Shown: piece after piece, positions 1,467 to 43,569 of the stretch
Numbering within the stretch: position 1 is the first letter of the stretch
Layout: each line of letters begins with the position of its first letter
Origin: Aphelocoma coerulescens
Lineage: Eukaryota; Chordata; Aves; Passeriformes; Corvidae
NCBI RefSeq assembly: GCF_041296385.1
Contig: NW_027184062.1
Span: forward strand, 1,493,501 to 1,557,500
DNA length: 64,000 bases
Direction: 5' to 3'
The notes under the pieces: model-generated
Databases searched by the model: none
What the model was told of the DNA's origin: nothing
Seen by the model: only the letters and a program-made list of their open reading frames with translations
Translations under genes and position numbers: made by a program

Positions 1467-1499
1467 CTTTGTGCATTTCTGTGCCTTTCAACTGAGCCT

Positions 1500-1523: not shown

Positions 1524-1570
1524 CCAGACAAACTTCTCAGAGCGTTTGTTCAAGGACACACATACACACT

Positions 1571-1602
1571 CCTCTGCATCCTGCTTGCAGCAAGAGCAGA
1601 GG
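1571..1602 (+). other. Hairpin, 7 bp stem with 18 nt loop
   Basis: CCTCTGC at 1571-1577 pairs with GCAGAGG at 1596-1602. The loop contains ctgcttgcagcaag, which can pair within itself. In units 26-29 the 3' arm is GTGGAGG, which in RNA still pairs through two G-U wobbles. In units 24 and 25 an extra G follows the arm. Confidence 0.55.
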
Positions 1603-1693
1603 AAGCAACTTTGTTTCTTTTTAGCCAGTTTTCAGCTCCTTTTCTCTGGGGGGAGATGGAGAGTTGAACTTTGTTTTCCTGGGACTTTGGGGG

Positions 1694-1716
1694 TTTTTTC
1701 CCCTTCTTCTCTTCTT
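1694..1716 (+). other. Pyrimidine tract, length-variable
   Basis: A 23-base T/C run. The junction before it varies between copies: ggggg then six T and four C, eight T and three C, or seven T and three or four C. It accounts for one-base length changes in units 2, 6, 12, 13, 18, 19, 22, 24 and 25. Confidence 0.75.
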
Positions 1717-1741
1717 GACTCTTTCAACATCAGACCACATT

Positions 1742-1757
1742 GGGAGAATTTTCTCCC
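1742..1757 (+). other. Hairpin gggagaa-tt-ttctccc
   Basis: Two 7-base arms are separated by two bases, close to a perfect palindrome. It is present at this phase in every complete unit I looked at. The two-base loop is tight for RNA but possible as a cruciform in DNA. Confidence 0.6.
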
Positions 1758-1764
1758 GAGGTGG

Positions 1765-1783
1765 GGGCCCTGAATGTGGGCCC
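1765..1783 (+). other. Paired GGGCCC palindromes
   Basis: GGGCCC occurs at 1765-1770 and 1778-1783, separated by tgaatgt. Each is self-complementary, and the two can pair with each other to form a 6 bp stem with a 7-base loop. In units 12, 18 and 26-30, where seen, ggttgggg precedes the first site in place of ggtggggg, but both GGGCCC sites are kept. Confidence 0.6.
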
Positions 1784-1861
1784 ATGAGCCAGCTGCAAGG
1801 AGGAGGAGAGAGACTACACCTACGGAAGTGTTGGGGTTCCTCCCCCCTGCCATGAGGTCAT

Positions 1862-1925
1862 GGGAGAGGGGACCCTGGGGTAGAGGCATGGCCTGGGCAC
1901 GGGGGTCTCCCTGCTCCCTGCTCAC
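1862..1925 (+). other. G-rich stretch with indel hotspot
   Basis: Five G-runs of three or more (1862, 1868, 1877, 1895 and 1901) could form a G-quadruplex with one long loop. The last run is four to six G long across the copies. It is followed by a partial tandem repeat of ctccctg at 1908-1921, one copy of which is lost in units 7, 14, 20, 23 and 25. This is the most length-variable site of the unit. Confidence 0.6.
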
Positions 1926-2019
1926 ATGTGCCCTAACCCTGTTCAGCACTGCTTATTTTGTGTTGCCCTGTGCGAGGAGGGCCCTGGTTGTGCTGTGATT
2001 GCTCAGTTCTTTGGCAGTG

Positions 2020-2027
2020 CCCCGCCC
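2020..2027 (-). promoter_or_regulatory. GC box (CCCCGCCC)
   Basis: This is the reverse complement of GGGCGGGG, an Sp1-type site, about 160 bases before the AT-rich ttttaatattta at the start of the next unit. Units 10 and 16 read CCCCACCC. A U3-like promoter role is a guess from position only. Confidence 0.3.
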
Positions 2028-2178
2028 ATGTGGCTGGAGAAGAAAGAGCTCTGAAACTTCTCTCAAGAATCGCTCCCTGTTTCTTTGCACGGGCCTCGCT
2101 GTCTATGGATGTTTCAGGAGACCCCACCGAAACACAGAAGGACTCTCAAATTATCCCAGCTTTCTCTGCACAGCGAGA

Positions 2179-17451: not shown

Positions 17452-19629
17452 GGTTTTAATATTTAGCATTGTTATCCTTTTCCTGTGTGTTTGTTAAAAA
17501 AGTAGTTTTTATCTCTTTCACTTTCTTCCCAGGAAAGTTCTTTTTTCCAAAAACCTGGTGAGGGAGGGCTGGGTGTAACCTGCCTTCTATCAGAGGATAT
17601 TTTCCTCCACATTTGTCCAAACCGGCACAGCCTGTCCTTTCCTGGGTCTCTGTTGCAGATGGAAGCTGCTGGTGCCATTGTCAGCTTGAAGCCCTCTTTT
17701 GATGCAAGCAGATGTTGCCAGGTGTGTTCAGCAGCTGTTGCTCAATGCTTATGCCAAGCTATTGTGTTCCTCATGGAACCAAGGAGCCATTGTGACACTG
17801 CAGGGGCTGATGGCATCAAGGAGGCAATTGTGACAGTACAGAACCTCCTAGAAACAAGGCTCCATTGTGACACCGTGGGGAATCATGGAATCAAGGAGCC
17901 CATTGTGACACGGCTGCATGGAACCAATGGTCCATGGTTACACGGCGGATTCAAGAAGAGCACGGTGACACCACGCAACATCACGGAACCATAGGTCCAT
18001 TGTGACACAGCGGGGCCTCATGGAAACAAGGGGACCATTGTGGCAAAGCAGGGCCTAATGGAAGCATGGAGAGCATTGTGACACTAAGGAAACTCCTGGA
18101 ACCAAGATGACCACTGGCACATAATGGAACCTCATGGAAGCAAGCCTCCACGATGGTTTTGGAGGGCCTCAGGGACCACAGGACCCATTGTGACACAGCA
18201 GGACCTGGTGGAACCAAGGAGCCTTTGTGATACTCCAGATCCACATGGAAGCCAGGGTGCACTGAGACACAGCGGGGCCTTGTTGGAACCAAAGACACCT
18301 CTGCAAAAAGCAGGCTAGCTCATAGAAGCAAGGAGTCCTTTGTTACAACATCAAACCTATGGAAGCAAGGGACCATTGTGACACTGCGGGGCCTCATGGA
18401 ACCAATTGTCCATGATGACAGTGCGGATCAAAGGAGACCATGGTGACACTGCGGAACCTGATGGAACCAAGGAGCCATTGTGACACAGTGGGGCCTCATG
18501 GAATCAAGGAGACCATTGTGACCCAGGTGTTGCATGGGAAGGCAAGGAGCCATTGTGACACTTTGGGCTTCTTCCCTTGAGCTCTGCAGCTGGCTGTCCC
18601 AGCCCAGCGCACCATGTGCCACCTGCTCTCCTCAGGGCTCTGCCTGCACACAGCCCCAGGAGAAGTTTTCCTGTTTGGAAGGAAAGAATGGAAAAGCCTG
18701 AGCAGGTTTCCTAAACAACAAACCCCACTCAGGAGCCACATGCTCAGTACAGGCTGCCTGGAACGATGTCCCCTTTCTACAAGGGTCAGTGTGAGCAGGA
18801 ATGAATGATCTCTGGGAGCAGAATTCTCGGAGTCTTTCCACTGAATTCTCTGTCCCTGTGTCTTGGGGTGACTTTATTGTGTGTATCCCCTATTGCTGCT
18901 CTATGCCCAGAAGTAAACTTTGTGCATTTCTGTGCCTTTCAACTGAGCCTGAGAGGGGGGAGAGGAAAAAAAAGCCAGACAAACTTCTCAGAGCGTTTGT
19001 TCAAGGACACACATACACACTCCTCTGCATCCTGCTTGCAGCAAGAGCAGAGGAAGCAACTTTGTTTCTTTTTAGCCAGTTTTCAGCTCCTTTTCTCTGG
19101 GGGGAGATGGAGAGTTGAACTTTGTTTTCCTGGGACTTTGGGGGTTTTTTCCCCTTCTTCTCTTCTTGACTCTTTCAACATCAGACCACATTGGGAGAAT
19201 TTTCTCCCGAGGTGGGGGCCCTGAATGTGGGCCCATGAGCCAGCTGCAAGGAGGAGGAGAGAGACTACACCTACGGAAGTGTTGGGGTTCCTCCCCCCTG
19301 CCATGAGGTCATGGGAGAGGGGACCCTGGGGTAGAGGCATGGCCTGGGCACGGGGGTCTCCCTGCTCCCTGCTCACATGTGCCCTAATCCTGTTCAGCAC
19401 TGCTTATTTTGTGTTGCCCTGTGCGAGGAGGGCCCTGGTTGTGCTGTGATTGCTCAGTTCTTTGGCAGTGCCCCGCCCATGTGGCTGGAGAAGAAAGAGC
19501 TCTGAAACTTCTCTCAAGAATCGCTCCCTGTTTCTTTGCACGGGCCTCGCTGTCTATGGATGTTTCAGGAGACCCCACCGAAACACAGAAGGACTCTCAA
19601 ATTATCCCAGCTTTCTCTGCACAGCGAGA
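17452..19629 (+). repeat. Unit 9, type A, member 1 of higher-order copy 1
   Basis: A 2,178 bp A copy with gttgcatggg and ctgtttgg (18678). It ends in gagagc rather than gagagg. Confidence 0.96.
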
Positions 19630-21805
19630 GCTTTTAATATTTAGCATTGTTATCCTTTTCCTGTGTGTTTGTTAAAAAAATAGTTTTTATCTCTTTCACT
19701 TTCTTCCCAGGAAAGTTCTTTTTTCCAAAAACCTGGTGGGGGAGGGCTGGGTGTAACCTGCCTTCTATCAGAGGATATTTTCCTCCACATTTGTCCAAAC
19801 CGGCACAGCCTGTCCTTTCCTGGGTCTCTGTTGCAGATGGAAGCTGCTGGTGCCATTGTCAGCTTGAAGCCCTCTTTTGATGCAAGCAGATGTTGCCAGG
19901 TGTGTTCAGCAGCTGTTGCTCAATGCTTATGCCAAGCTATTGTGTTCCTCATGGAACCAAGGAGCCATTGTGACACTGCAGGGGCTGATGGCATCAAGGA
20001 GGCAATTGTGACAGTACAGAACCTCCTAGAAACAAGGCTCCATTGTGACACCGTGGGGAATCATGGAATCAAGGAGCCCATTGTGACACGGCTGCATGGA
20101 ACCAATGGTCCATGGTTACACGGCGGATTCAAGAAGAGCACGGTGACACCACGCAACATCATGGAACCATAGGTCCATTGTGACACAGCGGGGCCTCATG
20201 GAAACAAGGGGACCATTGTGGCAAAGCAGGGCCTAATGGAAGCATGGAGGGCATTGTGACACTAAGGAAACTCCTGGAACCAAGATGACCACTGGCACAT
20301 AATGGAACCTCATGGAAGCAAGCCTCCACGATGGTTTTGGAGGGCCTCAGGGACCACAGGACCCATTGTGACACAGCAGGACCTGGTGGAACCAAGGAGC
20401 CTTTGTGATACTCCAGATCCACATGGAAGCCAGGGTGCACTGAGACACAGCGGGGCCTTGTTGGAACCAAAGACACCTCTGCAAAAAGCAGGCTAGCTCA
20501 TAGAAGCAAGGAGTCCTTTGTTACAACATCAAACCTATGGAAGCAAGGGACCATTGTGACACTGCGGGGCCTCATGGAACCAATTGTCCATGATGACAGT
20601 GCGGATCAAAGCAGACCATGGTGACACTGCGGAACCTGATGGAACCAAGGAGCCATTGTGACACAGTGGGGCCTCATGGAATCAAGGAGACCATTGTGAC
20701 CCAGGTGTTGCATGTGAAGGCAAGGAGCCATTGTGACACTTTGGGCTTCTTCCCTTGAGCTCTGCAGCTGGCTGTCCCAGCCCAGCGCACCATGTGCCAC
20801 TGCTCTCCTCAGGGCTCTGCCTGCACACAGCCCCAGGAGAAGTTTTCCTGTTTGCAAGGAAAGAATGGAAAAGCCGGAGCAGGTTTCCTAAACAACAAAC
20901 CCCACTCAGGAGCCACATGCTCAGTACAGGCTGCCTGGAACGATGTCCCCTTTCTACAAGGGTCAGTGTGAGCAGGAATGAATGATCTCTGGGAGCAGAA
21001 TTCTCGGAGTCTTTCCACTGAATTCTCTGTCCCTGTGTCTTGGGGTGACTTTATTGTGTGTATCCCCTATTGCTGCTCTATGCCCAGAAGTGAACTTTGT
21101 GCATTTCTGTGCCTTTCAACTGAGCCTGAGAGGGGGGAGAGGAAAAAAAACCGGACAAACTTCTCAGAGCGTTTGTTCAAGGACACACATACACACTCCT
21201 CTGCATCCTGCTTGCAGCAAGAGCAGAGGAAGCAACTTTGTTTCTTTTTAGCCAGTTTTCAGCTCCTTTTCTCTGGGGGGAGATGGAGAGTTGAACTTTG
21301 TTTTCCTGGGACTTTGGGGGTTTTTTCCCCTTCTTCTCTTCTTGACTCTTTCAACATCAGAGCACATTGGGAGAATTTTCTCCCGAGGTGGGGGCCCTGA
21401 ATGTGGGCCCATGAGCCAGCTGCAAGGAGGAGGAGAGAGACTACACCTACGGAAGTGTTGGGGTTCCTCCCCCCTGCCATGAGGTCATGGGAGAGGGGAC
21501 CCTGGGGTAGAGGCATGGCCTGGGCACGGGGGTCTCCCTGCTCCCTGCTCACATGTGCCCTAACCCTGTTCAGCACTGCTTATTTTGTGTTGCCCTGTGC
21601 GAGGAGGGCCCTGGTTGTGCTGTGATTGCTCAGTTCTTTGGCAGTGCCCCACCCATGTGGCTGGAGAAGAAAGAGCTCTGAAACTTCTCTCAAGAATGGC
21701 TCCCTGTTTCTTTGCACGGGCCTCGCTGTCTATGGATGTTTCAGGAGACCCCACCGAAACACAGAAGGACTCTCAAATTATCCCAGCTTTCTCTGCACAG
21801 CGAGA
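19630..21805 (+). repeat. Unit 10, type B, member 2 of higher-order copy 1
   Basis: A 2,176 bp B copy. It begins gcttttaat where its partner unit 16 begins ggttttaat. Its GC box reads CCCCACCC (a at 21651), a change shared only with unit 16. Confidence 0.96.
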
Positions 21806-23983
21806 GGTTTTAATATTTAGCATTGTTATCCTTTTCCTGTGTGTTTGTTAAAAAAGTAGTTTTTATCTCTTTCACTTTCTTCCCAGGAAAGTTCTTTTTT
21901 CCAAAAACCTGGTGAGGGAGGGCTGGGTGTAACCTGCCTTCTATCAGAGGATATTTTCCTCCACATTTGTCCAAACCGGCACAGCCTGTCCTTTCCTGGG
22001 TCTCTGTTGCAGATGGAAGCTGCTGGTGCCATTGTCAGCTTGAAGCCCTCTTTTGATGCAAGCAGATGTTGCCAGGTGTGTTCAGCAGCTGTTGCTCAAT
22101 GCTTATGCCAAGCTATTGTGTTCCTCATGGAAGCAAGGAGCCATTGTGACACTGCAGGGGCTGATGGCATCAAGGAGGCAATTGTGACAGTACAGAACCT
22201 CCTAGAAACAAGGCTCCATTGTGACACCGTGGGGAATCATGGAATCAAGGAGCCCATTGTGACACGGCTGCATGGAACCAATGGTCCATGGTTACACGGC
22301 GGATTCAAGAAGAGCACGGTGACACCACGCAACATCACGGAACCATAGGTCCATTGTGACACAGCGGGGCCTCATGGAAACAAGGGGACCATTGTGGCAA
22401 AGCAGGGCCTAATGGAAGCATGGAGAGCATTGTGACACTAAGGAAACTCCTGGAACCAAGATGACCACTGGCACATAATGGAACCTCATGGAAGCAAGCC
22501 TCCACGATGGTTTTGGAGGGCCTCAGGGACCACAGGACCCATTGTGACACAGCAGGACCTGGTGGAACCAAGGAGCCTTTGTGATACTCCAGATCCACAT
22601 GGAAGCCAGGGTGCACTGAGACACAGCGGGGCCTTGTTGGAACCAAAGACACCTCTGCAAAAAGCAGGCTAGCTCATAGAAGCAAGGAGTCCTTTGTTAC
22701 AACATCAAACCTATGGAAGCAAGGGACCATTGTGACACTGCGGGGCCTCATGGAACCAATTGTCCATGATGACAGTGCGGATCAAAGGAGACCATGGTGA
22801 CACTGCGGAACCTGATGGAACCAAGGAGCCATTGTGACACAGTGGGGCCTCATGGAATCAAGGAGACCATTGTGACCCAGGTGTTGCATGGGAAGGCAAG
22901 GAGCCATTGTGACACTTTGGGCTTCTTCCCTTGAGCTCTGCAGCTGGCTGTCCCAGCCCAGCGCACCATGTGCCACCTGCTCTCCTCAGGGCTCTGCCTG
23001 CACACAGCCCCAGGAGAAGTTTTCCTGTTTGCAAGGAAAGAATGGAAAAGCCTGAGCAGGTTTCCTAAACAACAAACCCCACTCAGGAGCCACATGCTCA
23101 GTACAGGCTGCCTGGAACGATGTCCCCTTTCTACAAGGGTCAGTGTGAGCAGGAATGAATGATCTCTGGGAGCAGAATTCTCGGAGTCTTTCCACTGAAT
23201 TCTCTGTCCCTGTGTCTTGGGGTGACTTTATTGTGTGTATCCCCTATTGCTGCTCTATGCCCAGAAGTAAACTTTGTGCATTTCTGTGCCTTTCAACTGA
23301 GCCTGAGAGGGGGGAGAGGAAAAAAAAGCCAGACAAACTTCTCAGAGCGTTTGTTCAAGGACACACATACACACTCCTCTGCATCCTGCTTGCAGCAAGA
23401 GCAGAGGAAGCAACTTTGTTTCTTTTTAGCCAGTTTTCAGCTCCTTTTCTCTGGGGGGAGATGGAGAGTTGAACTTTGTTTTCCTGGGACTTTGGGGGTT
23501 TTTTCCCCTTCTTCTCTTCTTGACTCTTTCAACATCAGACCACATTGGGAGAATTTTCTCCCGAGGTGGGGGCCCTGAATGTGGGCCCATGAGCCAGCTG
23601 CAAGGAGGAGGAGAGAGACTACACCTACGGAAGTGTTGGGGTTCCTCCCCCCTGCCATGAGGTCATGGGAGAGGGGACCCTGGGGTAGAGGCATGGCCTG
23701 GGCACGGGGGTCTCCCTGCTCCCTGCTCACATGTGCCCTAACCCTGTTCAGCACTGCTTATTTTGTGTTGCCCTGTGCGAGGAGGGCCCTGGTTGTGCTG
23801 TGATTGCTCAGTTCTTTGGCAGTGCCCCGCCCATGTGGCTGGAGAAGAAAGAGCTCTGCAACTTCTCTCAAGAATCGCTCCCTGTTTCTTTGCACGGGCC
23901 TCGCTGTCTATGGATGTTTCAGGAGACCCCACCGAAACACAGAAGGACTCTCAAATTATCCCAGCTTTCTCTGCACAGCGAGA
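21806..23983 (+). repeat. Unit 11, type A variant, member 3 of higher-order copy 1
   Basis: A 2,178 bp A copy with catggaagcaagg near 22128 in place of catggaaccaagg. It shares gctctgca (c at 23859) only with unit 17. Confidence 0.96.
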
Positions 23984-26161
23984 GGTTTTAATATTTAGCA
24001 TTGTTATCCTTTTCCTGTGTGTTTGTTAAAAAAATAGTTTTTATCTCTTTCACTTTCTTCCCAGGAAAGTACTTTTTTCCAAAAACCTGGTGGGGGAGGG
24101 CTGGGTGTAACCTGCCTTCTATCAGAGGATATTTTCCTCCACATTTGTCCAAACCGGCACAGCCTGTCCTTTCCTGGGTCTCTGTTGCAGATGGAAGCTG
24201 CTGGTGCCATTGTCAGCTTGAAGCCCTCTTTTGATGCAAGCAGATGTTGCCAGGTGTGTTCAGCAGCTGTTGCTCAATGCTTATGCCAAGCTATTGTGTT
24301 CCTCATGGAACCAAGGAGCCATTGTGACACTGCAGGGGCTGATGGCATCAAGGAGGCAATTGTGACAGTACAGAACCTCCTAGAAACAAGGCTCCATTGT
24401 GACACCGTGGGGAATCATGGAATCAAGGAGCCCATTGTGACACGGCTGCATGGAACCAATGGTCCATGGTTACACGGCGGATTCAAGAAGAGCACGGTGA
24501 CACCACGCAACATCATGGAACCATAGGTCCATTGTGACACAGCGGGGCCTCATGGAAACAAGGGGACCATTGTGGCAAAGCAGGGCCTAATGGAAGCATG
24601 GAGGGCATTGTGACACTAAGGAAACTCCTGGAACCAAGATGACCACTGGCACATAATGGAACCTCATGGAAGCAAGCCTCCACGATGGTTTTGGAGGGCC
24701 TCAGGGACCACAGGACCCATTGTGACACAGCAGGACCTGGTGGAACCAAGGAGCCTTTGTGATACTCCAGATCCACATGGAAGCCAGGGTGCACTGAGAC
24801 ACAGCGGGGCCTTGTTGGAACCAAAGACACCTCTGCAAAAAGCAGGCTAGCTCATAGAAGCAAGGAGTCCTTTGTTACAACATCAAACCTATGGAAGCAA
24901 GGGACCATTGTGACACTGCGGGGCCTCATGGAACCAATTGTCCATGATGACAGTGCGGATCAAAGGAGACCATGGTGACACTGCGGAACCTGATGGAACC
25001 AAGGAGCCATTGTGACACAGTGGGGCCTCATGGAATCAAGGAGACCATTGTGACCCAGGTGTTGCATGTGAAGGCAAGGAGCCATTGTGACACTTTGGGC
25101 TTCTTCCCTTGAGCTCTGCAGCTGGCTGTCCCAGCCCAGCGCACCATGTGCCACCTGCTCTCCTCAGGGCTCTGCCTGCACACAGCCCCAGGAGAAGTTT
25201 TCCTGTTTGGAAGGAAAGAATGGAAAAGCCTGAGCAGGTTTCCTAAACAACAAACCCCACTCAGGAGCCACATGCTCAGTACAGGCTGCCTGGAACGATG
25301 TCCCCTTTCTACAAGGGTCAGTGTGAGCAGGAATGAATGATCTCTGGGAGCAGAATTCTCGGAGTCTTTCCACTGAATTCTCTGTCCCTGTGTCTTGTGG
25401 TGACTTTATTGTGTGTATCCCCTATTGCTGCTCTATGCCCAGAAGTGAACTTTGTGCATTTCTGTGCCTTTCAACTGAGCCTGAGAGGGGGGAGAGGAAA
25501 AAAAACCGGACAAACTTCTCAGAGCGTTTGTTCAAGGACACACATACACACTCCTCTGCATCCTGCTTGCAGCAAGAGCAGAGGAAGCAACTTGGTTTCT
25601 TTTTAGCCAGTTTTCAGCTCCTTTTCTCTGGGGGGAGATGGAGAGTTGAACTTTGTTTTCATGGGACTTCGGGGGTTTTTTTTCCCTTCTTCTCTTCTTG
25701 ACTCTTTCAACATCAGAGCACATTGGGAGAATTTTCTCCCGAGGTTGGGGCCCTGAATGTGGGCCCATGAGCCAGCTGCAAGGAGGAGGAGAGAGACTAC
25801 ACCTACGGAAGTGTTGGGGTTCCTCCCCCCTGCCATGAGGTCATGGGAGAGGGGACCCTGGGGTAGAGGCATGGCCTGGGCACGGGGGTCTCCCTGCTCC
25901 CTGCTCACATGTGCCCTAACCCTGTTCAGCACTGCTTATTTTGTGTTGCCTTGTGCGAGGAGGGCCCTGGTTGTGCCGTGATTGTTCAGTTCTTTGGCAG
26001 TGCCCCGCCCATGTGGCTGGAGAAGAAAGAGCTCTGAAACTTCTCTCAAGAATCGCTCCCTGTTTCTTTGCACGGGCCTCGCTGTCTATGGATGTTTCAG
26101 GAGACCCCACCGAAACACGGAAGGACTCTCAAATTATCCCAGCTTTCTCTGCACAGCGAGA
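23984..26161 (+). repeat. Unit 12, chimeric, member 4 of higher-order copy 1
   Basis: The head resembles unit 6 (ggaaagtac, a at 24071). From about 25390 on (cttgtggtg, acttggttt, tttcatggg) it matches unit 13. The length stays 2,178 bp through one loss at the A-run and one gain in the T-run. Confidence 0.95.
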
Positions 26162-28339
26162 GCTTTTAATATTTAGCATTGCTATCCTTTTCCTGTGTGT
26201 TTGTTAAAAAAATAGTTTTTATCTCTTTCACTTTCTTCCCAGGAAAGTTCTTTTTTCCAAAAACCTGGTGGGGGAGGGCTGGGTGTAACCTGCCTTCTAT
26301 CAGAGGATATTTTCCTCCACATTTGTCCAAACCGGCACAGCCTGTCCTTTCCTGGGTCTCTGTTGCAGATGGAAGCTGCTGGTGCCATTGTCAGCTTGAA
26401 GCCCTCTTTTGATGCAAGCAGATGTTGCCAGGTGTGTTCAGCAGCTGTTGCTCAATGCTTATGCCAAGCTATTGTGTTCCTCATGGAAGCAAGGAGCCAT
26501 TGTGACACTGCAGGGGCTGATGGCATCAAGGAGGCAATTGTGACAGTACAGAACCTCCTAGAAACAAGGCTCCATTGTGACACCGTGGGGAATCATGGAA
26601 TCAAGGAGCCCATTGTGACACGGCTGCATGGAACCAATGGTCCATGGTTACACGGCGGATTCAAGAAGAGCACGGTGACACCACGCAACATCACGGAACC
26701 ATAGGTCCATTGTGACACAGCGGGGCCTCATGGAAACAAGGGGACCATTGTGGCAAAGCAGGGCCTAATGGAAGCATGGAGGGCATTGTGACACTAAGGA
26801 AACTCCTGGAACCAAGATGACCACTGGCACATAATGGAACCTCATGGAAGCAAGCCTCCACAATGACTTTGGAGGGCCTCAGGGACCACAGGACCCATTG
26901 TGACACAGCAGGACCTGGTGGAACCAAGGAGCCTTTGTGATACTCCAGATCCACATGGAAGCCAGGGTGCACTGAGACACAGCGGGGCCTTGTTGGAACC
27001 AAAGACACCTCTGCAAAAAGCAGGCTAGCTCATAGAAGCAAGGAGTCCTTTGTTACAACATCAAACCTATGGAAGCAAGGGACCATTGTGACACTGCGGG
27101 GCCTCATGGAACCAATTGTCCATGATGACAGTGCGGATCAAAGCAGACCATGGTGACACTGCGGAACCTGATGGAACCAAGGAGCCATTGTGACACAGTG
27201 GGGCCTCATGGAATCAAGGAGACCATTGTGACCCAGGTGTTGCATGTGAAGGCAAGGAGCCATTGTGACACTTTGGGCTTCTTCCCTTGAGCTCTGCAGC
27301 TGGCTGTCCCAGCCCAGCGCACCATGTGCCACCTGCTCTCCTCAGGGCTCTGCCTGCACACAGCCCCAGGAGAAGTTTTCCTGTTTGCAAGGAAAGAATG
27401 GAAAAGCCGGAGCAGGTTTCCTAAACAACAAACCCCACTCAGGAGCCACATGCTCAGTACAGGCTGCCTGGAACGATGTCCCCTTTCTACAAGGGTCAGG
27501 GTGAGCAGGAATGAATGATCTCTGGGAGCAGAATTCTCGGAGTCTTTCCACTGAATTCTCTGTCCCTGTGTCTTGTGGTGACTTTATTGTGTGTATCCCC
27601 TATTGCTGCTCTATGCCCAGAAGTGAACTTTGTGCATTTCTGTGCCTTTCAACTGAGCCTGAGAGGGGGGAGAGGAAAAAAAACCGGACAAACTTCTCAG
27701 AGCGTTTGTTCAAGGACACACATACACACTCCTCTGCATCCTGCTTGCAGCAAGAGCAGAGGAAGCAACTTGGTTTCTTTTTAGCCAGTTTTCAGCTCCT
27801 TTTCTCTGGGGGGAGATGGAGAGTTGAACTTTGTTTTCATGGGACTTCGGGGGTTTTTTTTCCCTTCTTCTCTTCTTGACTCTTTCAACATCAGAGCACA
27901 TTGGGAGAATTTTCTCCCGAGGTGGGGGCCCTGAATGTGGGCCCATGAGCCAGCTGCAAGGAGGAGGAGAGAGACTACACCTACGGAAGTGTTGGGGTTC
28001 CTCCCCCCTGCCATGAGGTCATGGGAGAGGGGACCCTGGGGTAGAGGCATGGCCTGGGCACGGGGGTCTCCCTGCTCCCTGCTCACATGTGCCCTAACCC
28101 TGTTCAGCACTGCTTATTTTGTGTTGCCCTGTGCGAGGAGGGCCCTGGTTGTGCCGTGATTGCTCAGTTCTTTGGCAGTGCCCCGCCCATGTGGCTGGAG
28201 AAGAAAGAGCTCTGAAACTTCTCTCAAGAATGGCTCCCTGTTTCTTTGCACGGGCCTCGCTGTCTATGGATGTTTCAGGAGACCCCACCGAAACACGGAA
28301 GGACTCTCAAATTATCCCAGCTTTCTCTGCACAGCGAGA
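26162..28339 (+). repeat. Unit 13, member 5 of higher-order copy 1
   Basis: A 2,178 bp copy with cctccacaatgac near 26863, gtcagggtgagc near 27495, and the same tail block as unit 12. It has gctatcc in place of gttatcc near the start. Confidence 0.96.
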
Positions 28340-32688: not shown

Positions 32689-34864
32689 GGTTTTAATATT
32701 TAGCATTGTTATCCTTTTCCTGTGTGTTTGTTAAAAAAATAGTTTTTATCTCTTTCACTTTCTTCCCAGGAAAGTTCTTTTTTCCAAAAACCTGGTGGGG
32801 GAGGGCTGGGTGTAACCTGCCTTCTATCAGAGGATATTTTCCTCCACATTTGTCCAAACCGGCACAGCCTGTCCTTTCCTGGGTCTCTGTTGCAGATGGA
32901 AGCTGCTGGTGCCATTGTCAGCTTGAAGCCCTCTTTTGATGCAAGCAGATGTTGCCAGGTGTGTTCAGCAGCTGTTGCTCAATGCTTATGCCAAGCTATT
33001 GTGTTCCTCATGGAACCAAGGAGCCATTGTGACACTGCAGGGGCTGATGGCATCAAGGAGGCAATTGTGACAGTACAGAACCTCCTAGAAACAAGGCTCC
33101 ATTGTGACACCGTGGGGAATCATGGAATCAAGGAGCCCATTGTGACACGGCTGCATGGAACCAATGGTCCATGGTTACACGGCGGATTCAAGAAGAGCAC
33201 GGTGACACCACGCAACATCATGGAACCATAGGTCCATTGTGACACAGCGGGGCCTCATGGAAACAAGGGGACCATTGTGGCAAAGCAGGGCCTAATGGAA
33301 GCATGGAGGGCATTGTGACACTAAGGAAACTCCTGGAACCAAGATGACCACTGGCACATAATGGAACCTCATGGAAGCAAGCCTCCACGATGGTTTTGGA
33401 GGGCCTCAGGGACCACAGGACCCATTGTGACACAGCAGGACCTGGTGGAACCAAGGAGCCTTTGTGATACTCCAGATCCACATGGAAGCCAGGGTGCACT
33501 GAGACACAGCGGGGCCTTGTTGGAACCAAAGACACCTCTGCAAAAAGCAGGCTAGCTCATAGAAGCAAGGAGTCCTTTGTTACAACATCAAACCTATGGA
33601 AGCAAGGGACCATTGTGACACTGCGGGGCCTCATGGAACCAATTGTCCATGATGACAGTGCGGATCAAAGCAGACCATGGTGACACTGCGGAACCTGATG
33701 GAACCAAGGAGCCATTGTGACACAGTGGGGCCTCATGGAATCAAGGAGACCATTGTGACCCAGGTGTTGCATGTGAAGGCAAGGAGCCATTGTGACACTT
33801 TGGGCTTCTTCCCTTGAGCTCTGCAGCTGGCTGTCCCAGCCCAGCGCACCATGTGCCACTGCTCTCCTCAGGGCTCTGCCTGCACACAGCCCCAGGAGAA
33901 GTTTTCCTGTTTGCAAGGAAAGAATGGAAAAGCCGGAGCAGGTTTCCTAAACAACAAACCCCACTCAGGAGCCACATGCTCAGTACAGGCTGCCTGGAAC
34001 GATGTCCCCTTTCTACAAGGGTCAGTGTGAGCAGGAATGAATGATCTCTGGGAGCAGAATTCTCGGAGTCTTTCCACTGAATTCTCTGTCCCTGTGTCTT
34101 GGGGTGACTTTATTGTGTGTATCCCCTATTGCTGCTCTATGCCCAGAAGTGAACTTTGTGCATTTCTGTGCCTTTCAACTGAGCCTGAGAGGGGGGAGAG
34201 GAAAAAAAACCGGACAAACTTCTCAGAGCGTTTGTTCAAGGACACACATACACACTCCTCTGCATCCTGCTTGCAGCAAGAGCAGAGGAAGCAACTTTGT
34301 TTCTTTTTAGCCAGTTTTCAGCTCCTTTTCTCTGGGGGGAGATGGAGAGTTGAACTTTGTTTTCCTGGGACTTTGGGGGTTTTTTCCCCTTCTTCTCTTC
34401 TTGACTCTTTCAACATCAGAGCACATTGGGAGAATTTTCTCCCGAGGTGGGGGCCCTGAATGTGGGCCCATGAGCCAGCTGCAAGGAGGAGGAGAGAGAC
34501 TACACCTACGGAAGTGTTGGGGTTCCTCCCCCCTGCCATGAGGTCATGGGAGAGGGGACCCTGGGGTAGAGGCATGGCCTGGGCACGGGGGTCTCCCTGC
34601 TCCCTGCTCACATGTGCCCTAACCCTGTTCAGCACTGCTTATTTTGTGTTGCCCTGTGCGAGGAGGGCCCTGGTTGTGCTGTGATTGCTCAGTTCTTTGG
34701 CAGTGCCCCACCCATGTGGCTGGAGAAGAAAGAGCTCTGAAACTTCTCTCAAGAATGGCTCCCTGTTTCTTTGCACGGGCCTCGCTGTCTATGGATGTTT
34801 CAGGAGACCCCACCGAAACACAGAAGGACTCTCAAATTATCCCAGCTTTCTCTGCACAGCGAGA
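32689..34864 (+). repeat. Unit 16, type B, member 2 of higher-order copy 2
   Basis: The counterpart of unit 10, 2,176 bp, sharing the CCCCACCC change in the GC box (34710). Confidence 0.96.
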
Positions 34865-37042
34865 GGTTTTAATATTTAGCATTGTTATCCTTTTCCTGTG
34901 TGTTTGTTAAAAAAGTAGTTTTTATCTCTTTCACTTTCTTCCCAGGAAAGTTCTTTTTTCCAAAAACCTGGTGAGGGAGGGCTGGGTGTAACCTGCCTTC
35001 TATCAGAGGATATTTTCCTCCACATTTGTCCAAACCGGCACAGCCTGTCCTTTCCTGGGTCTCTGTTGCAGATGGAAGCTGCTGGTGCCATTGTCAGCTT
35101 GAAGCCCTCTTTTGATGCAAGCAGATGTTGCCAGGTGTGTTCAGCAGCTGTTGCTCAATGCTTATGCCAAGCTATTGTGTTCCTCATGGAAGCAAGGAGC
35201 CATTGTGACACTGCAGGGGCTGATGGCATCAAGGAGGCAATTGTGACAGTACAGAACCTCCTAGAAACAAGGCTCCATTGTGACACCGTGGGGAATCATG
35301 GAATCAAGGAGCCCATTGTGACACGGCTGCATGGAACCAATGGTCCATGGTTACACGGCGGATTCAAGAAGAGCACGGTGACACCACGCAACATCACGGA
35401 ACCATAGGTCCATTGTGACACAGCGGGGCCTCATGGAAACAAGGGGACCATTGTGGCAAAGCAGGGCCTAATGGAAGCATGGAGAGCATTGTGACACTAA
35501 GGAAACTCCTGGAACCAAGATGACCACTGGCACATAATGGAACCTCATGGAAGCAAGCCTCCACGATGGTTTTGGAGGGCCTCAGGGACCACAGGACCCA
35601 TTGTGACACAGCAGGACCTGGTGGAACCAAGGAGCCTTTGTGATACTCCACATCCACATGGAAGCCAGGGTGCACTGAGACACAGCGGGGCCTTGTTGGA
35701 ACCAAAGACACCTCTGCAAAAAGCAGGCTAGCTCATAGAAGCAAGGAGTCCTTTGTTACAACATCAAACCTATGGAAGCAAGGGACCATTGTGACACTGC
35801 GGGGCCTCATGGAACCAATTGTCCATGATGACAGTGCGGATCAAAGGAGACCATGGTGACACTGCGGAACCTGATGGAACCAAGGAGCCATTGTGACACA
35901 GTGGGGCCTCATGGAATCAAGGAGACCATTGTGACCCAGGTGTTGCATGGGAAGGCAAGGAGCCATTGTGACACTTTGGGCTTCTTCCCTTGAGCTCTGC
36001 AGCTGGCTGTCCCAGCCCAGCGCACCATGTGCCACCTGCTCTCCTCAGGGCTCTGCCTGCACACAGCCCCAGGAGAAGTTTTCCTGTTTGCAAGGAAAGA
36101 ATGGAAAAGCCTGAGCAGGTTTCCTAAACAACAAACCCCACTCAGGAGCCACATGCTCAGTACAGGCTGCCTGGAACGATGTCCCCTTTCTACAAGGGTC
36201 AGTGTGAGCAGGAATGAATGATCTCTGGGAGCAGAATTCTCGGAGTCTTTCCACTGAATTCTCTGTCCCTGTGTCTTGGGGTGACTTTATTGTGTGTATC
36301 CCCTATTGCTGCTCTATGCCCAGAAGTAAACTTTGTGCATTTCTGTGCCTTTCAACTGAGCCTGAGAGGGGGGAGAGGAAAAAAAAGCCAGACAAACTTC
36401 TCAGAGCGTTTGTTCAAGGACACACATACACACTCCTCTGCATCCTGCTTGCAGCAAGAGCAGAGGAAGCAACTTTGTTTCTTTTTAGCCAGTTTTCAGC
36501 TCCTTTTCTCTGGGGGGAGATGGAGAGTTGAACTTTGTTTTCCTGGGACTTTGGGGGTTTTTTCCCCTTCTTCTCTTCTTGACTCTTTCAACATCAGAGC
36601 ACATTGGGAGAATTTTCTCCCGAGGTGGGGGCCCTGAATGTGGGCCCATGAGCCAGCTGCAAGGAGGAGGAGAGAGACTACACCTACGGAAGTGTTGGGG
36701 TTCCTCCCCCCTGCCATGAGGTCATGGGAGAGGGGACCCTGGGGTAGAGGCATGGCCTGGGCACGGGGGTCTCCCTGCTCCCTGCTCACATGTGCCCTAA
36801 CCCTGTTCAGCACTGCTTATTTTGTGTTGCCCTGTGCGAGGAGGGCCCTGGTTGTGCTGTGATTGCTCAGTTCTTTGGCAGTGCCCCGCCCATGTGGCTG
36901 GAGAAGAAAGAGCTCTGCAACTTCTCTCAAGAATCGCTCCCTGTTTCTTTGCACGGGCCTCGCTGTCTATGGATGTTTCAGGAGACCCCACCGAAACACA
37001 GAAGGACTCTCAAATTATCCCAGCTTTCTCTGCACAGCGAGA
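34865..37042 (+). repeat. Unit 17, type A variant, member 3 of higher-order copy 2
   Basis: The counterpart of unit 11, sharing gctctgca (36918). It differs from unit 11 at 35651 (c for g) and 36599 (g for c). Both alternative bases occur in other unit types, so short conversion tracts are possible. Confidence 0.96.
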
Positions 37043-39220
37043 GGTTTTAATATTTAGCATTGTTATCCTTTTCCTGTGTGTTTGTTAAAAAAATAGTTTT
37101 TATCTCTTTCACTTTCTTCCCAGGAAAGTACTTTTTTCCAAAAACCTGGTGGGGGAGGGCTGGGTGTAACCTGCCTTCTATCAGAGGATATTTTCCTCCA
37201 CATTTGTCCAAACCGGCACAGCCTGTCCTTTCCTGGGTCTCTGTTGCAGATGGAAGCTGCTGGTGCCATTGTCAGCTTGAAGCCCTCTTTTGATGCAAGC
37301 AGATGTTGCCAGGTGTGTTCAGCAGCTGTTGCTCAATGCTTATGCCAAGCTATTGTGTTCCTCATGGAACCAAGGAGCCATTGTGACACTGCAGGGGCTG
37401 ATGGCATCAAGGAGGCAATTGTGACAGTACAGAACCTCCTAGAAACAAGGCTCCATTGTGACACCGTGGGGAATCATGGAATCAAGGAGCCCATTGTGAC
37501 ACGGCTGCATGGAACCAATGGTCCATGGTTACACGGCGGATTCAAGAAGAGCACGGTGACACCACGCAACATCATGGAACCATAGGTCCATTGTGACACA
37601 GCGGGGCCTCATGGAAACAAGGGGACCATTGTGGCAAAGCAGGGCCTAATGGAAGCATGGAGGGCATTGTGACACTAAGGAAACTCCTGGAACCAAGATG
37701 ACCACTGGCACATAATGGAACCTCATGGAAGCAAGCCTCCACGATGGTTTTGGAGGGCCTCAGGGACCACAGGACCCATTGTGACACAGCAGGACCTGGT
37801 GGAACCAAGGAGCCTTTGTGATACTCCAGATCCACATGGAAGCCAGGGTGCACTGAGACACAGCGGGGCCTTGTTGGAACCAAAGACACCTCTGCAAAAA
37901 GCAGGCTAGCTCATAGAAGCAAGGAGTCCTTTGTTACAACATCAAACCTATGGAAGCAAGGGACCATTGTGACACTGCGGGGCCTCATGGAACCAATTGT
38001 CCATGATGACAGTGCGGATCAAAGGAGACCATGGTGACACTGCGGAACCTGATGGAACCAAGGAGCCATTGTGACACAGTGGGGCCTCATGGAATCAAGG
38101 AGACCATTGTGACCCAGGTGTTGCATGTGAAGGCAAGGAGCCATTGTGACACTTTGGGCTTCTTCCCTTGAGCTCTGCAGCTGGCTGTCCCAGCCCAGCG
38201 CACCATGTGCCACCTGCTCTCCTCAGGGCTCTGCCTGCACACAGCCCCAGGAGAAGTTTTCCTGTTTGGAAGGAAAGAATGGAAAAGCCTGAGCAGGTTT
38301 CCTAAACAACAAACCCCACTCAGGAGCCACATGCTCAGTACAGGCTGCCTGGAACGATGTCCCCTTTCTACAAGGGTCAGTGTGAGCAGGAATGAATGAT
38401 CTCTGGGAGCAGAATTCTCGGAGTCTTTCCACTGAATTCTCTGTCCCTGTGTCTTGTGGTGACTTTATTGTGTGTATCCCCTATTGCTGCTCTATGCCCA
38501 GAAGTGAACTTTGTGCATTTCTGTGCCTTTCAACTGAGCCTGAGAGGGGGGAGAGGAAAAAAAACCGGACAAACTTCTCAGAGCGTTTGTTCAAGGACAC
38601 ACATACACACTCCTCTGCATCCTGCTTGCAGCAAGAGCAGAGGAAGCAACTTGGTTTCTTTTTAGCCAGTTTTCAGCTCCTTTTCTCTGGGGGGAGATGG
38701 AGAGTTGAACTTTGTTTTCATGGGACTTCGGGGGTTTTTTTTCCCTTCTTCTCTTCTTGACTCTTTCAACATCAGAGCACATTGGGAGAATTTTCTCCCG
38801 AGGTTGGGGCCCTGAATGTGGGCCCATGAGCCAGCTGCAAGGAGGAGGAGAGAGACTACACCTACGGAAGTGTTGGGGTTCCTCCCCCCTGCCATGAGGT
38901 CATGGGAGAGGGGACCCTGGGGTAGAGGCATGGCCTGGGCACGGGGGTCTCCCTGCTCCCTGCTCACATGTGCCCTAACCCTGTTCAGCACTGCTTATTT
39001 TGTGTTGCCTTGTGCGAGGAGGGCCCTGGTTGTGCCGTGATTGTTCAGTTCTTTGGCAGTGCCCCGCCCATGTGGCTGGAGAAGAAAGAGCTCTGAAACT
39101 TCTCTCAAGAATCGCTCCCTGTTTCTTTGCACGGGCCTCGCTGTCTATGGATGTTTCAGGAGACCCCACCGAAACACGGAAGGACTCTCAAATTATCCCA
39201 GCTTTCTCTGCACAGCGAGA
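37043..39220 (+). repeat. Unit 18, chimeric, member 4 of higher-order copy 2
   Basis: The counterpart of unit 12, with ggaaagtac in the head (a at 37130) and the tttcatggg tail block. I see no difference from unit 12. Confidence 0.95.
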
Positions 39221-41398
39221 GCTTTTAATATTTAGCATTGCTATCCTTTTCCTGTGTGTTTGTTAAAAAAATAGTTTTTATCTCTTTCACTTTCTTCCCA
39301 GGAAAGTTCTTTTTTCCAAAAACCTGGTGGGGGAGGGCTGGGTGTAACCTGCCTTCTATCAGAGGATATTTTCCTCCACATTTGTCCAAACCGGCACAGC
39401 CTGTCCTTTCCTGGGTCTCTGTTGCAGATGGAAGCTGCTGGTGCCATTGTCAGCTTGAAGCCCTCTTTTGATGCAAGCAGATGTTGCCAGGTGTGTTCAG
39501 CAGCTGTTGCTCAATGCTTATGCCAAGCTATTGTGTTCCTCATGGAAGCAAGGAGCCATTGTGACACTGCAGGGGCTGATGGCATCAAGGAGGCAATTGT
39601 GACAGTACAGAACCTCCTAGAAACAAGGCTCCATTGTGACACCGTGGGGAATCATGGAATCAAGGAGCCCATTGTGACACGGCTGCATGGAACCAATGGT
39701 CCATGGTTACACGGCGGATTCAAGAAGAGCACGGTGACACCACGCAACATCACGGAACCATAGGTCCATTGTGACACAGCGGGGCCTCATGGAAACAAGG
39801 GGACCATTGTGGCAAAGCAGGGCCTAATGGAAGCATGGAGGGCATTGTGACACTAAGGAAACTCCTGGAACCAAGATGACCACTGGCACATAATGGAACC
39901 TCATGGAAGCAAGCCTCCACAATGACTTTGGAGGGCCTCAGGGACCACAGGACCCATTGTGACACAGCAGGACCTGGTGGAACCAAGGAGCCTTTGTGAT
40001 ACTCCAGATCCACATGGAAGCCAGGGTGCACTGAGACACAGCGGGGCCTTGTTGGAACCAAAGACACCTCTGCAAAAAGCAGGCTAGCTCATAGAAGCAA
40101 GGAGTCCTTTGTTACAACATCAAACCTATGGAAGCAAGGGACCATTGTGACACTGCGGGGCCTCATGGAACCAATTGTCCATGATGACAGTGCGGATCAA
40201 AGCAGACCATGGTGACACTGCGGAACCTGATGGAACCAAGGAGCCATTGTGACACAGTGGGGCCTCATGGAATCAAGGAGACCATTGTGACCCAGGTGTT
40301 GCATGTGAAGGCAAGGAGCCATTGTGACACTTTGGGCTTCTTCCCTTGAGCTCTGCAGCTGGCTGTCCCAGCCCAGCGCACCATGTGCCACCTGCTCTCC
40401 TCAGGGCTCTGCCTGCACACAGCCCCAGGAGAAGTTTTCCTGTTTGCAAGGAAAGAATGGAAAAGCCGGAGCAGGTTTCCTAAACAACAAACCCCACTCA
40501 GGAGCCACATGCTCAGTACAGGCTGCCTGGAACGATGTCCCCTTTCTACAAGGGTCAGGGTGAGCAGGAATGAATGATCTCTGGGAGCAGAATTCTCGGA
40601 GTCTTTCCACTGAATTCTCTGTCCCTGTGTCTTGTGGTGACTTTATTGTGTGTATCCCCTATTGCTGCTCTATGCCCAGAAGTGAACTTTGTGCATTTCT
40701 GTGCCTTTCAACTGAGCCTGAGAGGGGGGAGAGGAAAAAAAACCGGACAAACTTCTCAGAGCGTTTGTTCAAGGACACACATACACACTCCTCTGCATCC
40801 TGCTTGCAGCAAGAGCAGAGGAAGCAACTTGGTTTCTTTTTAGCCAGTTTTCAGCTCCTTTTCTCTGGGGGGAGATGGAGAGTTGAACTTTGTTTTCATG
40901 GGACTTCGGGGGTTTTTTTTCCCTTCTTCTCTTCTTGACTCTTTCAACATCAGAGCACATTGGGAGAATTTTCTCCCGAGGTGGGGGCCCTGAATGTGGG
41001 CCCATGAGCCAGCTGCAAGGAGGAGGAGAGAGACTACACCTACGGAAGTGTTGGGGTTCCTCCCCCCTGCCATGAGGTCATGGGAGAGGGGACCCTGGGG
41101 TAGAGGCATGGCCTGGGCACGGGGGTCTCCCTGCTCCCTGCTCACATGTGCCCTAACCCTGTTCAGCACTGCTTATTTTGTGTTGCCCTGTGCGAGGAGG
41201 GCCCTGGTTGTGCCGTGATTGCTCAGTTCTTTGGCAGTGCCCCGCCCATGTGGCTGGAGAAGAAAGAGCTCTGAAACTTCTCTCAAGAATGGCTCCCTGT
41301 TTCTTTGCACGGGCCTCGCTGTCTATGGATGTTTCAGGAGACCCCACCGAAACACGGAAGGACTCTCAAATTATCCCAGCTTTCTCTGCACAGCGAGA
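39221..41398 (+). repeat. Unit 19, member 5 of higher-order copy 2
   Basis: The counterpart of unit 13, with cctccacaatgac and gtcagggtgagc. I see no difference from unit 13. Confidence 0.95.
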
Positions 41399-43569
41399 GG
41401 TTTTAATATTTAGCATTGCTATCCTTTTCCTGTGTGTTTGTTAAAAAAATAGTTTTTATCTCTTTCACTTTCTTCCCAGGAAAGTTCTTTTTTCCAAAAA
41501 CCTGGTGGGGGAGGGCTGGGTGTAACCTGCCTTCTATCAGAGGATATTTTCCTCCACATTTGTCCAAACCGGCACAGCCTGTCCTTTCCTGGGTCTCTGT
41601 TGCAGATGGAAGCTGCTGGTGCCATTGTCAGCTTGAAGCCCTCTTTTGATGCAAGCAGATGTTGCCAGGTGTGTTCAGCAGCTGTTGCTCAATGCTTATG
41701 CCAAGCTATTGTGTTCCTCATGGAAGCAAGGAGCCATTGTGACACTGCAGGGGCTGATGGCATCAAGGAGGCAATTGTGACAGTACAGAACCTCCTAGAA
41801 ACAAGGCTCCATTGTGACACCGTGGGGAATCATGGAATCAAGGAGCCCATTGTGACACGGCTGCATGGAACCAATGGTCCATGGTTACACGGCGGATTCA
41901 AGAAGAGCACGGTGACACCACGCAACATCACGGAACCATAGGTCCATTGTGACACAGCGGGGCCTCATGGAAACAAGGGGACCATTGTGGCAAAGCAGGG
42001 CCTAATGGAAACATGGAGAGCATTGTGACACTAAGGAAACTCCTGGAACCAAGATGACCACTGGCACATAATGGAACCTCATGGAAGCAAGCCTCCACAA
42101 TGACTTTGGAGGGCCTCAGGGACCACAGGACCCATTGTGACACAGCAGGACCTGGTGGAACCAAGGAGCCTTTGTGATACTCCACATCCACATGGAAGCC
42201 AGGGTGCACTGAGACACAGTGGGGCCTTGTTGGAACCAAAGACACCTCTGCAAAAAGCAGGCTAGCTCATAGAAGCAAGGAGTCCATTGTTACAACGTAA
42301 AAGCTATGGAAGCAAGGGACCATTGTGACACTGCGGGGCCTCATGGAACCAATTGTCCATGATGACAGTGCGGATCAAAGCAGACCATGGTGACACTGCG
42401 GAACCTGATGGAACCAAGGAGCCATTGTGACACAGTGGGGCCTCATGGAATCAAGGAGACCATTGTGACCCAGGTGTTGCATGTGAAGGCAAGGAGCCAT
42501 TGTGACACTTTGGGCTTCTTCCCTTGAGCTCTGCAGCTGGCTGTCCCAGCCCAGCGCACCATGTGCCACCTGCTCTCCTCAGGGCTCTGCCTGCACACAG
42601 CCCCAGGAGAAGTTTTCCTGTTTGCAAGGAAAGAATGGAAAAGCCTGAGCAGGTTTCCTAAACAACAAACCCTACTCAGGAGCCACATGCTCAGTACAGG
42701 CTGCCTGGAACGATGTCCCCTTTCTACAAGGGTCAGTGTGAGCAGGAATGAATGATCTCTGGGAGCAGAATTCTCGGAGTCTTTCCACTGAATTCTCTGT
42801 CCCTGTGTCTTGGGGTGACTTTATCATGTGTATCCCCTATCGCTGCTCTATGCCCAGAAGTGAACTTTGTGCATTTCTGTGCCTTTCAACTGAGCCTGAG
42901 AGGGGGGAGAGGAAAAAAAACCGGACAAACTTCTCAGAGCGTTTGTTCAAGGACACACATACACACTCCTCTGCATCCTGCTTGCAGCAAGAGCAGAGGA
43001 AGCAACTTTGTTTCTTTTTAGCCAGTTTTCAGCTCCTTTTCTCTGGGGGGAGATGAAGAGTTGAACTTTGTTTTCCTGGGACTTTGGGGGTTTTTTCCCC
43101 TTCTTCTCTTCTTGACTCTTTCAACATCAGAGCACATTGGGAGAATTTTCTCCCGAGGTGGGGGCCCTGAATGTGGGCCCATGAGCCAGCTGCAAGGAGG
43201 AGGAGAGAGACTACACCTACGGAAGTGTTGGGGTTCCTCCCCCCTGCCATGAGGTCATGGGAGAGGGGACCCTGGGGTAGAGGCATGGCCTGGGCACGGG
43301 GGGTCTCCCTGCTCACATGTGCCCTAACCCTGTTCAGCACTGCTTATTTTGTGTTGCCCTGTGCCAGGAGGGCCCTGGTTGTGCTGTGATTGCTCAGTTC
43401 TTTGGCAGTGCCCCGCCCATGTGGCTGGAGAAGAAAGAGCTCTGAAACTTCTCTCAAGAATCGCTCCCTGTTTCTTTGCACGGGCCTCGCTGTCTATGGA
43501 TGTTTCAGGAGACCCCACCGAAACACAGAAGGACTCTCAAATTATCCCAGCTTTCTCTGCACAGCGAGA
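41399..43569 (+). repeat. Unit 20, member 6 of higher-order copy 2
   Basis: The counterpart of unit 14, 2,171 bp. It has 42011 a and 43056 a where unit 14 has g. The second change creates a stop in the frame that is open for 140 codons in unit 14. Its last 200 bases (gtgccagg, aatcgctcc, gagagc) leave the duplication and resemble unit 23. Confidence 0.95.

What the first reader, a model, noticed from the sequence alone, without database searches (positions are those of the whole stretch)
17452..43569. Six-unit, 13,059 bp higher-order repeat inside the macrosatellite
Units 9-14 and 15-20 match in order, individual length (including the odd 2176 and 2171 bp members) and private variants, all at offset exactly 13,059. 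Neighbouring units differ far more than units six apart. This is the organisation known from primate alpha satellite, here with a 2.18 kb unit, giving a 13 kb higher-order period. Five internal substitutions show the two blocks are separate copies.
Basis: seen in the sequence. Interest (0 to 1): 0.75.

Follow-up and report, generated by a model that had tools for sequence, protein, structure and literature searches.

The report
Doubled six-unit block in satellite array
In a long array of 2.2-kb repeats, one run of six repeats has been copied once, side by side; the join can be placed to within 60 bases and looks like the everyday by-product of misaligned exchange inside tandem repeats.

Summary
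Units 9-14 (17452-30510) and 15-20 (30511-43569) are consecutive 13,059-bp copies differing at 7 sites. Paired units differ by 0, 1, 2, 0, 0 and 4 changes, neighbours by 20.8 on average; 0 of 2000 shuffled unit orders come close, and the unit tree pairs 9-15 to 14-20.

"Higher-order repeat as in alpha satellite" is only partly right. The full six-unit block occurs twice in the 264 kb examined. The same stretch holds repeats with other registers, among them 12, 7, 3 and 2 units. On contig C604 a six-unit block of different units is doubled; the one unit tested for a third copy lacks it. Monomers differ by about 1%.

Unit 14 is a recombinant: left part like unit 20, right part identical to unit 8, exchange within 30246-30305, as one exchange displaced by six units predicts. 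A neutral simulation at similar diversity gives 2.3-2.5 doublets per 117 units and no triplets; observed 2 and 0.

Verdict: a real, recent multi-unit tandem duplication, at most an incipient higher-order repeat. Assembly error is unlikely but was not tested with reads.

The parts
17452..30510 (+). first copy of the six-unit block, units U9-U14 (2178, 2176, 2178, 2178, 2178, 2171 bp)
   Evidence: unit segmentation and all-against-all differences; lag scan
30511..43569 (+). second copy of the six-unit block, units U15-U20, same lengths in order
   Evidence: 7 differences of 13,059 against the first copy
17187..17451 (+). tail of U8, identical to the tail of U14 (30246-30510); left end of the lag-13,059 identity
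28340..30510 (+). U14, recombinant unit: left part like U20, right part identical to U8
   Evidence: pairwise differences U14/U20 and U14/U8
30246..30305 (+). 60-bp interval identical in U8, U14 and U20 in which the exchange point is placed
   Evidence: three-way identity scan
41399..43569 (+). U20, the probable original of unit 14, with its own tail
   Evidence: 4 differences from U14, two of them right of the exchange interval
1..23983 (+). units U1-U11; odd-numbered units belong to one close type (0-8 differences among U1,3,5,7,9,11), U4, U8, U10 to a second (3-4 differences); a dimer-like alternation broken by U2 and U6
   Evidence: distance matrix, variant table, tree
17769..18522 (+). 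stretch of U9 in which a degenerate minisatellite of about 32-38 bp lies; the same rows recur in other units
   Evidence: Tandem Repeats Finder; motif spacing in U9

Best explanation
The feature is one recent tandem duplication of six units in a macrosatellite array of 2.17-2.22-kb units. Two copies of the array, most likely sister chromatids, paired out of register by six units; an exchange then joined the left part of unit 14 to the tail of unit 8, so that units 9-14 were repeated. Shown: exact doubling, preserved phase, the recombinant unit and a 60-bp exchange interval. Inferred: that the partners were sister chromatids rather than homologues, and crossover rather than break-induced or other template-switch replication. 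After duplication the copies came to differ at five further sites: one allele unique among the sequences held, one rare allele, and three alleles common elsewhere in the array (probably small conversions). Nothing seen here indicates that the block itself does anything; it is what a long homogeneous array can produce by chance.
For: Exact lag and 7 differences. U14 differs from U20 at 4 sites and from U8 at many sites, all of the latter left of the interval; right of it U14 equals U8 over 265 bp, including both diagnostic sites where U20 differs. U15 equals U9 (0 differences), while U21 differs from U15 by 22, as expected if the original continuation follows the second copy. Other registers in the same 264 kb: 12 units (26,530 bp, 2 mismatches and a 1-base lag shift; 357-bp three-way interval), 7 units (31 mismatches over 18,988 bp), 2 units (0 mismatches over 4485; 137-bp interval), 3 units (0 over 4123). 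C604: a six-unit block of different units repeated at lag 13,054 with 0 mismatches over at least 11,247 bp (the sixth unit of the second copy was not read whole), and the single unit tested for a third copy differs by 23. Neutral simulation at m=0.01: mean 2.33 and 2.50 doublets per 117 units, 11 of 12 replicates with at least one in each of two settings, triplets in 0 of 24; observed 2 doublets, 0 triplets; mean pair difference 38.1 and 35.3 against 34.9 observed, neighbour difference 27.8 and 31.4 against 24.3.
Against: No reads, coverage or second individual were available. Six simulation settings were run and the two closest in diversity are quoted; the two at low mutation gave doublets in 2 of 12 and 0 of 12 replicates. 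One of the two observed doublets (12 units) passes the criterion although one of its unit pairs differs by 14. The 3-unit repeat has no three-way identical interval under the same ungapped scan. The six-unit register recurs: 3 of the 15 long segments on C642 have it (one full, two partial), C604 has it, and on C220 the best lag was 13,058 with unit lengths 2178, 2176, 2178, 2178, 2177, 2171 in nearly the block's order. This could hint at a preferred register or a shared six-unit order, although the last two C220 units of that run are not close to units 13 and 14 (29 and 24 changes).
Confidence: 0.77

Rival explanations
1. Assembly artefact: the assembler walked the same stretch twice, or laid the two haplotypes of one 13-kb block end to end.
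For: Such an error is reported for a kb-unit array: in a Drosophila strain hifiasm appears to have visited one node twice and duplicated part of the histone cluster (passage of PMC12400953). The block here has exactly two copies, and the C604 repeat has no differences over at least 11,247 bp.
Against: A node walked twice should give identical copies; here 7 sites differ, one with an allele found nowhere else in the sequence held (28952, second copy). No N lies in the 264 kb joined from the window and its neighbours. Repeat sizes and junction phases differ from place to place. Haplotypes laid end to end would not predict that unit 14 ends in unit 8's tail unless the join fell at shared sequence, which remains possible.
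Confidence: 0.13
2. A true higher-order repeat array in the alpha-satellite sense, with a 13.06-kb block selected or homogenised as a unit, for example at a centromere.
For: Inter-block identity far above inter-unit identity. On C220 (19 kb read) unit types and lengths follow the block's order for four units (A, B, A, X-like) and the best lag is 13,058. Chicken CNM satellites form centromeric HORs (abstract and passages of PMC9974502), relevant if this is a bird.
Against: Only two copies; no third in the 264 kb read and none at the one place tested on C604; different registers side by side; the fifth and sixth C220 units are not those of the block; no exact CENP-B box in the window (consensus recalled).
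Confidence: 0.07
3. Replication-based copying (break-induced replication or template switching) rather than reciprocal unequal exchange made the duplication. This is a variant of the best explanation and its odds overlap with it.
For: Gives the same sequence outcome; one stretch of 4977 bp (window 42674-47650) recurs 113,295 bp away with 2 mismatches, which a single neighbouring exchange does not explain.
Against: Nothing specific; the two cannot be told apart from one chromosome.
Confidence: 0.2

Closest known systems
Drosophila melanogaster histone cluster (about 5-kb units, about 110 copies), PMC12400953
   Same: kb-scale units at most about 1.2% apart, multi-unit duplications, unequal sister chromatid exchange suggested by the authors (abstract and passages seen)
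   Different: gene-bearing units; here Rfam and Pfam on 8 of 23 listed frames found nothing in the unit
Primate alpha-satellite HORs
   Same: blocks of several monomers more alike than the monomers within a block
   Different: 171-bp monomers about 70% identical inside a HOR, arrays up to megabases (passages of PMC8122249, PMC11062924); here 2.18-kb monomers about 99% identical and two blocks
Chicken CNM satellite HORs, PMC9974502
   Same: a satellite with multi-unit repeats
   Different: 41-bp monomer, 26-98 monomers per HOR unit and 5-162 HOR units per cluster (passage); sequence relation to the present repeat not tested
Human macrosatellites such as D4Z4 and DXZ4
   Same: kb-scale tandem units (passage of PMC8122249)
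   Different: those are 3-3.3 kb and DXZ4 is described as CpG-rich; here CpG observed/expected is 0.19 in U9; no sequence comparison made

Membership tests
Higher-order repeat (alpha-satellite sense) | block of n monomers, copies of the block far more alike than monomers within it | tested here: met
   0,1,2,0,0,4 differences between copies against a mean of 20.8 between neighbours
Higher-order repeat (alpha-satellite sense) | block iterated many times in tandem | tested here: not met
   two copies; no third in 117 units over 264 kb; the array continues beyond what was read
Higher-order repeat (alpha-satellite sense) | monomers strongly diverged within a block (about 70% identity, PMC8122249 passage) | tested here: not met
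   mean of 25.1 changes over all window pairs, about 1.15% of 2178 bp
Alpha satellite itself | 171-bp monomer, CENP-B box | tested here: not met
   unit 2171-2217 bp apart from one interval with an insert; 0 exact CENP-B boxes on either strand of the window (consensus recalled)
Centromeric satellite | CENP-A occupancy | not testable with these tools
   no chromatin data
Macrosatellite | head-to-tail units of kilobase length in a long array | tested here: met
   119 anchors on the + strand and 0 on the - strand over 264 kb; 6 of 20 samples of the contig match, at 1.35, 1.40, 1.75, 1.80, 1.90 Mb and the contig end; 12 from 0.15 to 1.25 Mb do not, 2 read N
Unequal-exchange duplication in a tandem array | phase-preserving doublet with a recombinant unit at the junction | tested here: met
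   U14 = U20-like left, U8-like right; 60-bp exchange interval

The most novel reading that the evidence does not exclude
Exchange in this satellite family may have a preferred register of six units (about 13 kb): the doublet here is 13,059 bp, an array on C604 has one of 13,054 bp made of different units, the best lag on C220 is 13,058, and the next doublet on this contig is twelve units (26.17 kb). If real, some physical period (loop, replicon or nucleoprotein fold of about 13 kb) would set the size of new higher-order repeats, tying HOR length to chromatin rather than to chance. The 7-, 8-, 3- and 2-unit registers in the same stretch speak against it.
Probability: 0.06. Interest if true: 0.6.

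Novelty: new member of a known kind. Interest (0 to 1): 0.27.

Why it matters
It shows a higher-order repeat at about the moment of birth: two copies, an exchange point placed to 60 bp and five later differences, in a long-unit array where variants are dense enough to read single events. Several repeats of different sizes in one stretch make the array a good place to measure how often, and how far out of register, satellite arrays recombine. It does not overturn any view of satellite evolution that I know of.

Tried and rejected
Rejected: that the six-unit period is the array's general period. Over 117 units, runs of at least three close pairs occur at lags 4, 6, 7, 8, 12, 14, 15, 19 and 21 (lags 1-24 scanned); the base-level scan added lags of 2 and 3 units and others; within the 264 kb read no second full six-unit doublet was found, only two partial lag-six segments (7308 bp with 9 mismatches, 6607 bp with 5). 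Rejected: an older third copy of the block upstream (units 3-8). Only the first three positions match (3, 3, 3 differences) and the other three do not (28, 30, 24); the matches come from the two alternating unit types. Not supported: a shared breakpoint hotspot. Left-edge phases in the unit are 1912, 626, 329, 2136 and 1903 for the 6-, 12-, 2-, 3- and 7-unit repeats; two lie close together, but an edge is only the nearest variable site, and five cases are few.

No coding or RNA content seen: 0 Pfam families at E 0.1 in 8 of the 23 listed frames of one unit, 0 Rfam families above gathering score over two units. No match in the plasmid collection (an uninformative control). Contig C220 carries units close to those just left of and at the start of the block (2 changes from u026 and u027, then B, A and X-like), but its next two units are 18 and 9 changes from the nearest held unit of C642. 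Only 19 kb of it were read, too short to hold a 26-kb doublet, so whether it is the other haplotype or another locus, and whether it has the doublet, is open.

Literature: none of the listings or 46 (several of them capped at 20 of more papers) named a 2.18-kb satellite of this kind in a title or abstract start. I do not claim that it is absent from print. Unit and contig counts genome-wide could not be obtained; one search scored 40 of 226 candidates and listed 43 matches on 10 contigs.

Full report
What was checked. The window lies at C642:1493501-1557500 of an unnamed 1.33-Gb genome in 660 contigs. It consists of head-to-tail units of about 2178 bp, with an internal degenerate minisatellite of about 32-38 bp. 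With an anchor found by fuzzy match I cut 29 complete units and aligned them all against all.

How strong it is. Units 9-14 and 15-20 differ by 0, 1, 2, 0, 0 and 4 changes; the 11 adjacent pairs in the same stretch differ by 20.8 on average, and all pairs in the window by 25.1. No six-unit run in 2000 random orders of the same units came below 33, against 7 observed. In the tree, three of the six pairs are identical rows and the other three are sisters, with support 99/93, 99/95 and 96/77. The copies differ at 7 sites of 13,059.

How it arose. Ungapped identity at lag 13,059 does not begin at the unit border but at 17187, in the tail of unit 8. Unit 14 differs from unit 20 at only 4 sites, two of them near its end; it differs from unit 8 at many sites, none of them in the last 265 bp. 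Unit 14 is therefore best read as a recombinant, and the exchange lies in the 60 bp (30246-30305) where units 8, 14 and 20 are all identical. Unit 15 equals unit 9, and the unit after the second copy (U21) is unlike unit 15 (22 changes), as expected if the original sequence continues there. This is the signature of one exchange between array copies displaced by six units.

What happened afterwards. Of the 7 differences, two (30306, 30403) lie right of the exchange and come with it. Three (19631, 22592, 23540) swap between alleles that are each common in the 264 kb (25-mer counts of 22 to 97), which suggests small conversions. One (29997, second copy) is an allele seen 3 times in the 264 kb, itself included, and once on another contig. 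One (28952, second copy) is found nowhere else in the sequence held. The duplication is thus young relative to the roughly 1% spread among units; I give no date because the mutation rate and the organism are not known here.

Is it a higher-order repeat array? I joined the window with 200 kb of neighbouring contig: 119 anchors, all in one direction. Of the 118 intervals between anchors, 117 under 2500 bp were compared; the one with an insert was left out. The full six-unit block is present twice and no more. A base-level scan for ungapped segments of at least 4000 bp found 15 (candidate lags came from shared exact 300-mers, so gapped or older copies can be missed). Among them: a 12-unit doublet (89916-142617 in window-based coordinates, beyond the window; 2 mismatches plus a one-base lag shift), a 7-unit repeat running for 1.25 lags with 31 mismatches, an 8-unit-lag segment of 7534 bp without mismatch, a 2-unit and a 3-unit repeat with no mismatch, two partial six-unit-lag segments (9 and 5 mismatches), and copies up to 113 kb apart. 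Three-way identical intervals at the junction are 60, 357 and 137 bp for the 6-, 12- and 2-unit cases and 928 bp for the 7-unit case; the 3-unit case gave none. Left-edge phases in the unit vary.

Other arrays. One search listed 43 matches on 10 contigs (40 of 226 candidates scored, so a lower bound). On C604, 29 kb were read: a six-unit block of different units is repeated at lag 13,054 with no mismatch over at least 11,247 bp (the last unit of the second copy was not read whole), and the unit where a third copy would begin differs by 23 changes. On C220, 19 kb were read. Its best lag is 13,058, its unit lengths 2178, 2176, 2178, 2178, 2177, 2171 nearly repeat the block's order, and its unit types run A, B, A, X-like; but the next two units are not units 13 and 14 of the block, of its two unit pairs six apart one differs by 7 and the other by 41, and a pair four apart is identical. 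So part of the order is shared between contigs, while the block as a whole is not seen there; 19 kb cannot show or exclude a doublet.

Does chance suffice? A simulation with random duplications and deletions of runs of units (geometric, mean 3 or 6) plus mutation was run at three mutation settings, 12 replicates each. At the setting whose diversity is closest to the real array (mean pair difference 38.1 and 35.3, against 34.9 observed; neighbours 27.8 and 31.4, against 24.3) there were 2.33 and 2.50 doublets of 4-12 units per 117 units, at least one in 11 of 12 and 11 of 12 replicates, and no triplets. The real 117 units, by the same criterion, hold two doublets (six and twelve units; the latter includes one pair 14 apart) and no triplet. 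At the lowest mutation setting doublets were rare (2 of 12, 0 of 12); at the highest they were common (11 of 12, 10 of 12), with one triplet replicate. So no special mechanism or selection is called for, though the test has little power against a mild preference for six.

Against known systems. The nearest analogue that I saw is the Drosophila histone cluster: kb-scale units, small divergence, multi-unit duplications, unequal sister chromatid exchange suggested, and also a warning that hifiasm appears once to have duplicated a stretch falsely (abstract and passages of PMC12400953). Alpha-satellite HORs share the principle but not the iteration, monomer length or monomer divergence (passages of PMC8122249; PMC11062924). 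Chicken CNM HORs (abstract and passages of PMC9974502) are iterated 5-162 times. The 2017 crow tandem-repeat paper that seemed relevant is not held, so nothing from it is used.

What remains open. The duplication has not been checked with reads. The array's left end lies between 1.25 and 1.35 Mb of the contig (one sample at 1.30 Mb reads N) and the sample at the contig's end still matches; about 340-440 kb of it were not read apart from short samples. Whether the array is centromeric is unknown. CpG is strongly depleted (observed/expected 0.19 in U9), which would fit long-standing methylation, by inference.

Noticed in passing
C642:1583416-1636117 (window-based 89916-142617, beyond the window): A 12-unit block of about 26.2 kb is doubled in tandem with 2 mismatches and a one-base lag shift.
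   Followed up: partly
C642 at window-based 65063-99293, mostly beyond the window: A 7-unit (15,243-bp) repeat runs for 18,988 bp with 31 mismatches, 24 of them between 71.7 and 76.6 kb, so probably an older and partly converted duplication.
   Followed up: partly
window 42674-47650 and window-based 155969-160945: A 4977-bp stretch recurs 113,295 bp (52 units) away with only 2 mismatches; a single neighbouring exchange does not explain this.
   Followed up: no
C642:1677508-1682171 (approximate): An insert inside one unit is flanked by 635-bp direct repeats 99.7% identical, so it looks like a young LTR element in the array; only located, not studied.
   Followed up: no
L049-L051 (C604:2044293-2073292, reverse strand): A six-unit repeat of different units with lag 13,054 and no mismatch over at least 11,247 bp; either very recent or an assembly duplication.
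   Followed up: partly
C642:1433865-1471514: The 17 units here, left of the window, are 2208-2217 bp, about one minisatellite repeat longer; most have another unit within 10 changes. In the window 17 of 29 complete units are 2178 bp.
   Followed up: partly
window 10889-13103: Unit 6 is 2215 bp because of a 38-base insertion inside the minisatellite, i.e. about one extra short repeat.
   Followed up: yes
window 1-23983: Units 1-11 largely alternate between two unit types, a dimer-like pattern of about 4.35 kb, broken at units 2 and 6.
   Followed up: yes
L052-L053 (C220:109001-128000): A 146-kb contig carries units nearly the same as those at the window's left edge, in a shorter order; possibly the other haplotype of this locus.
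   Followed up: partly
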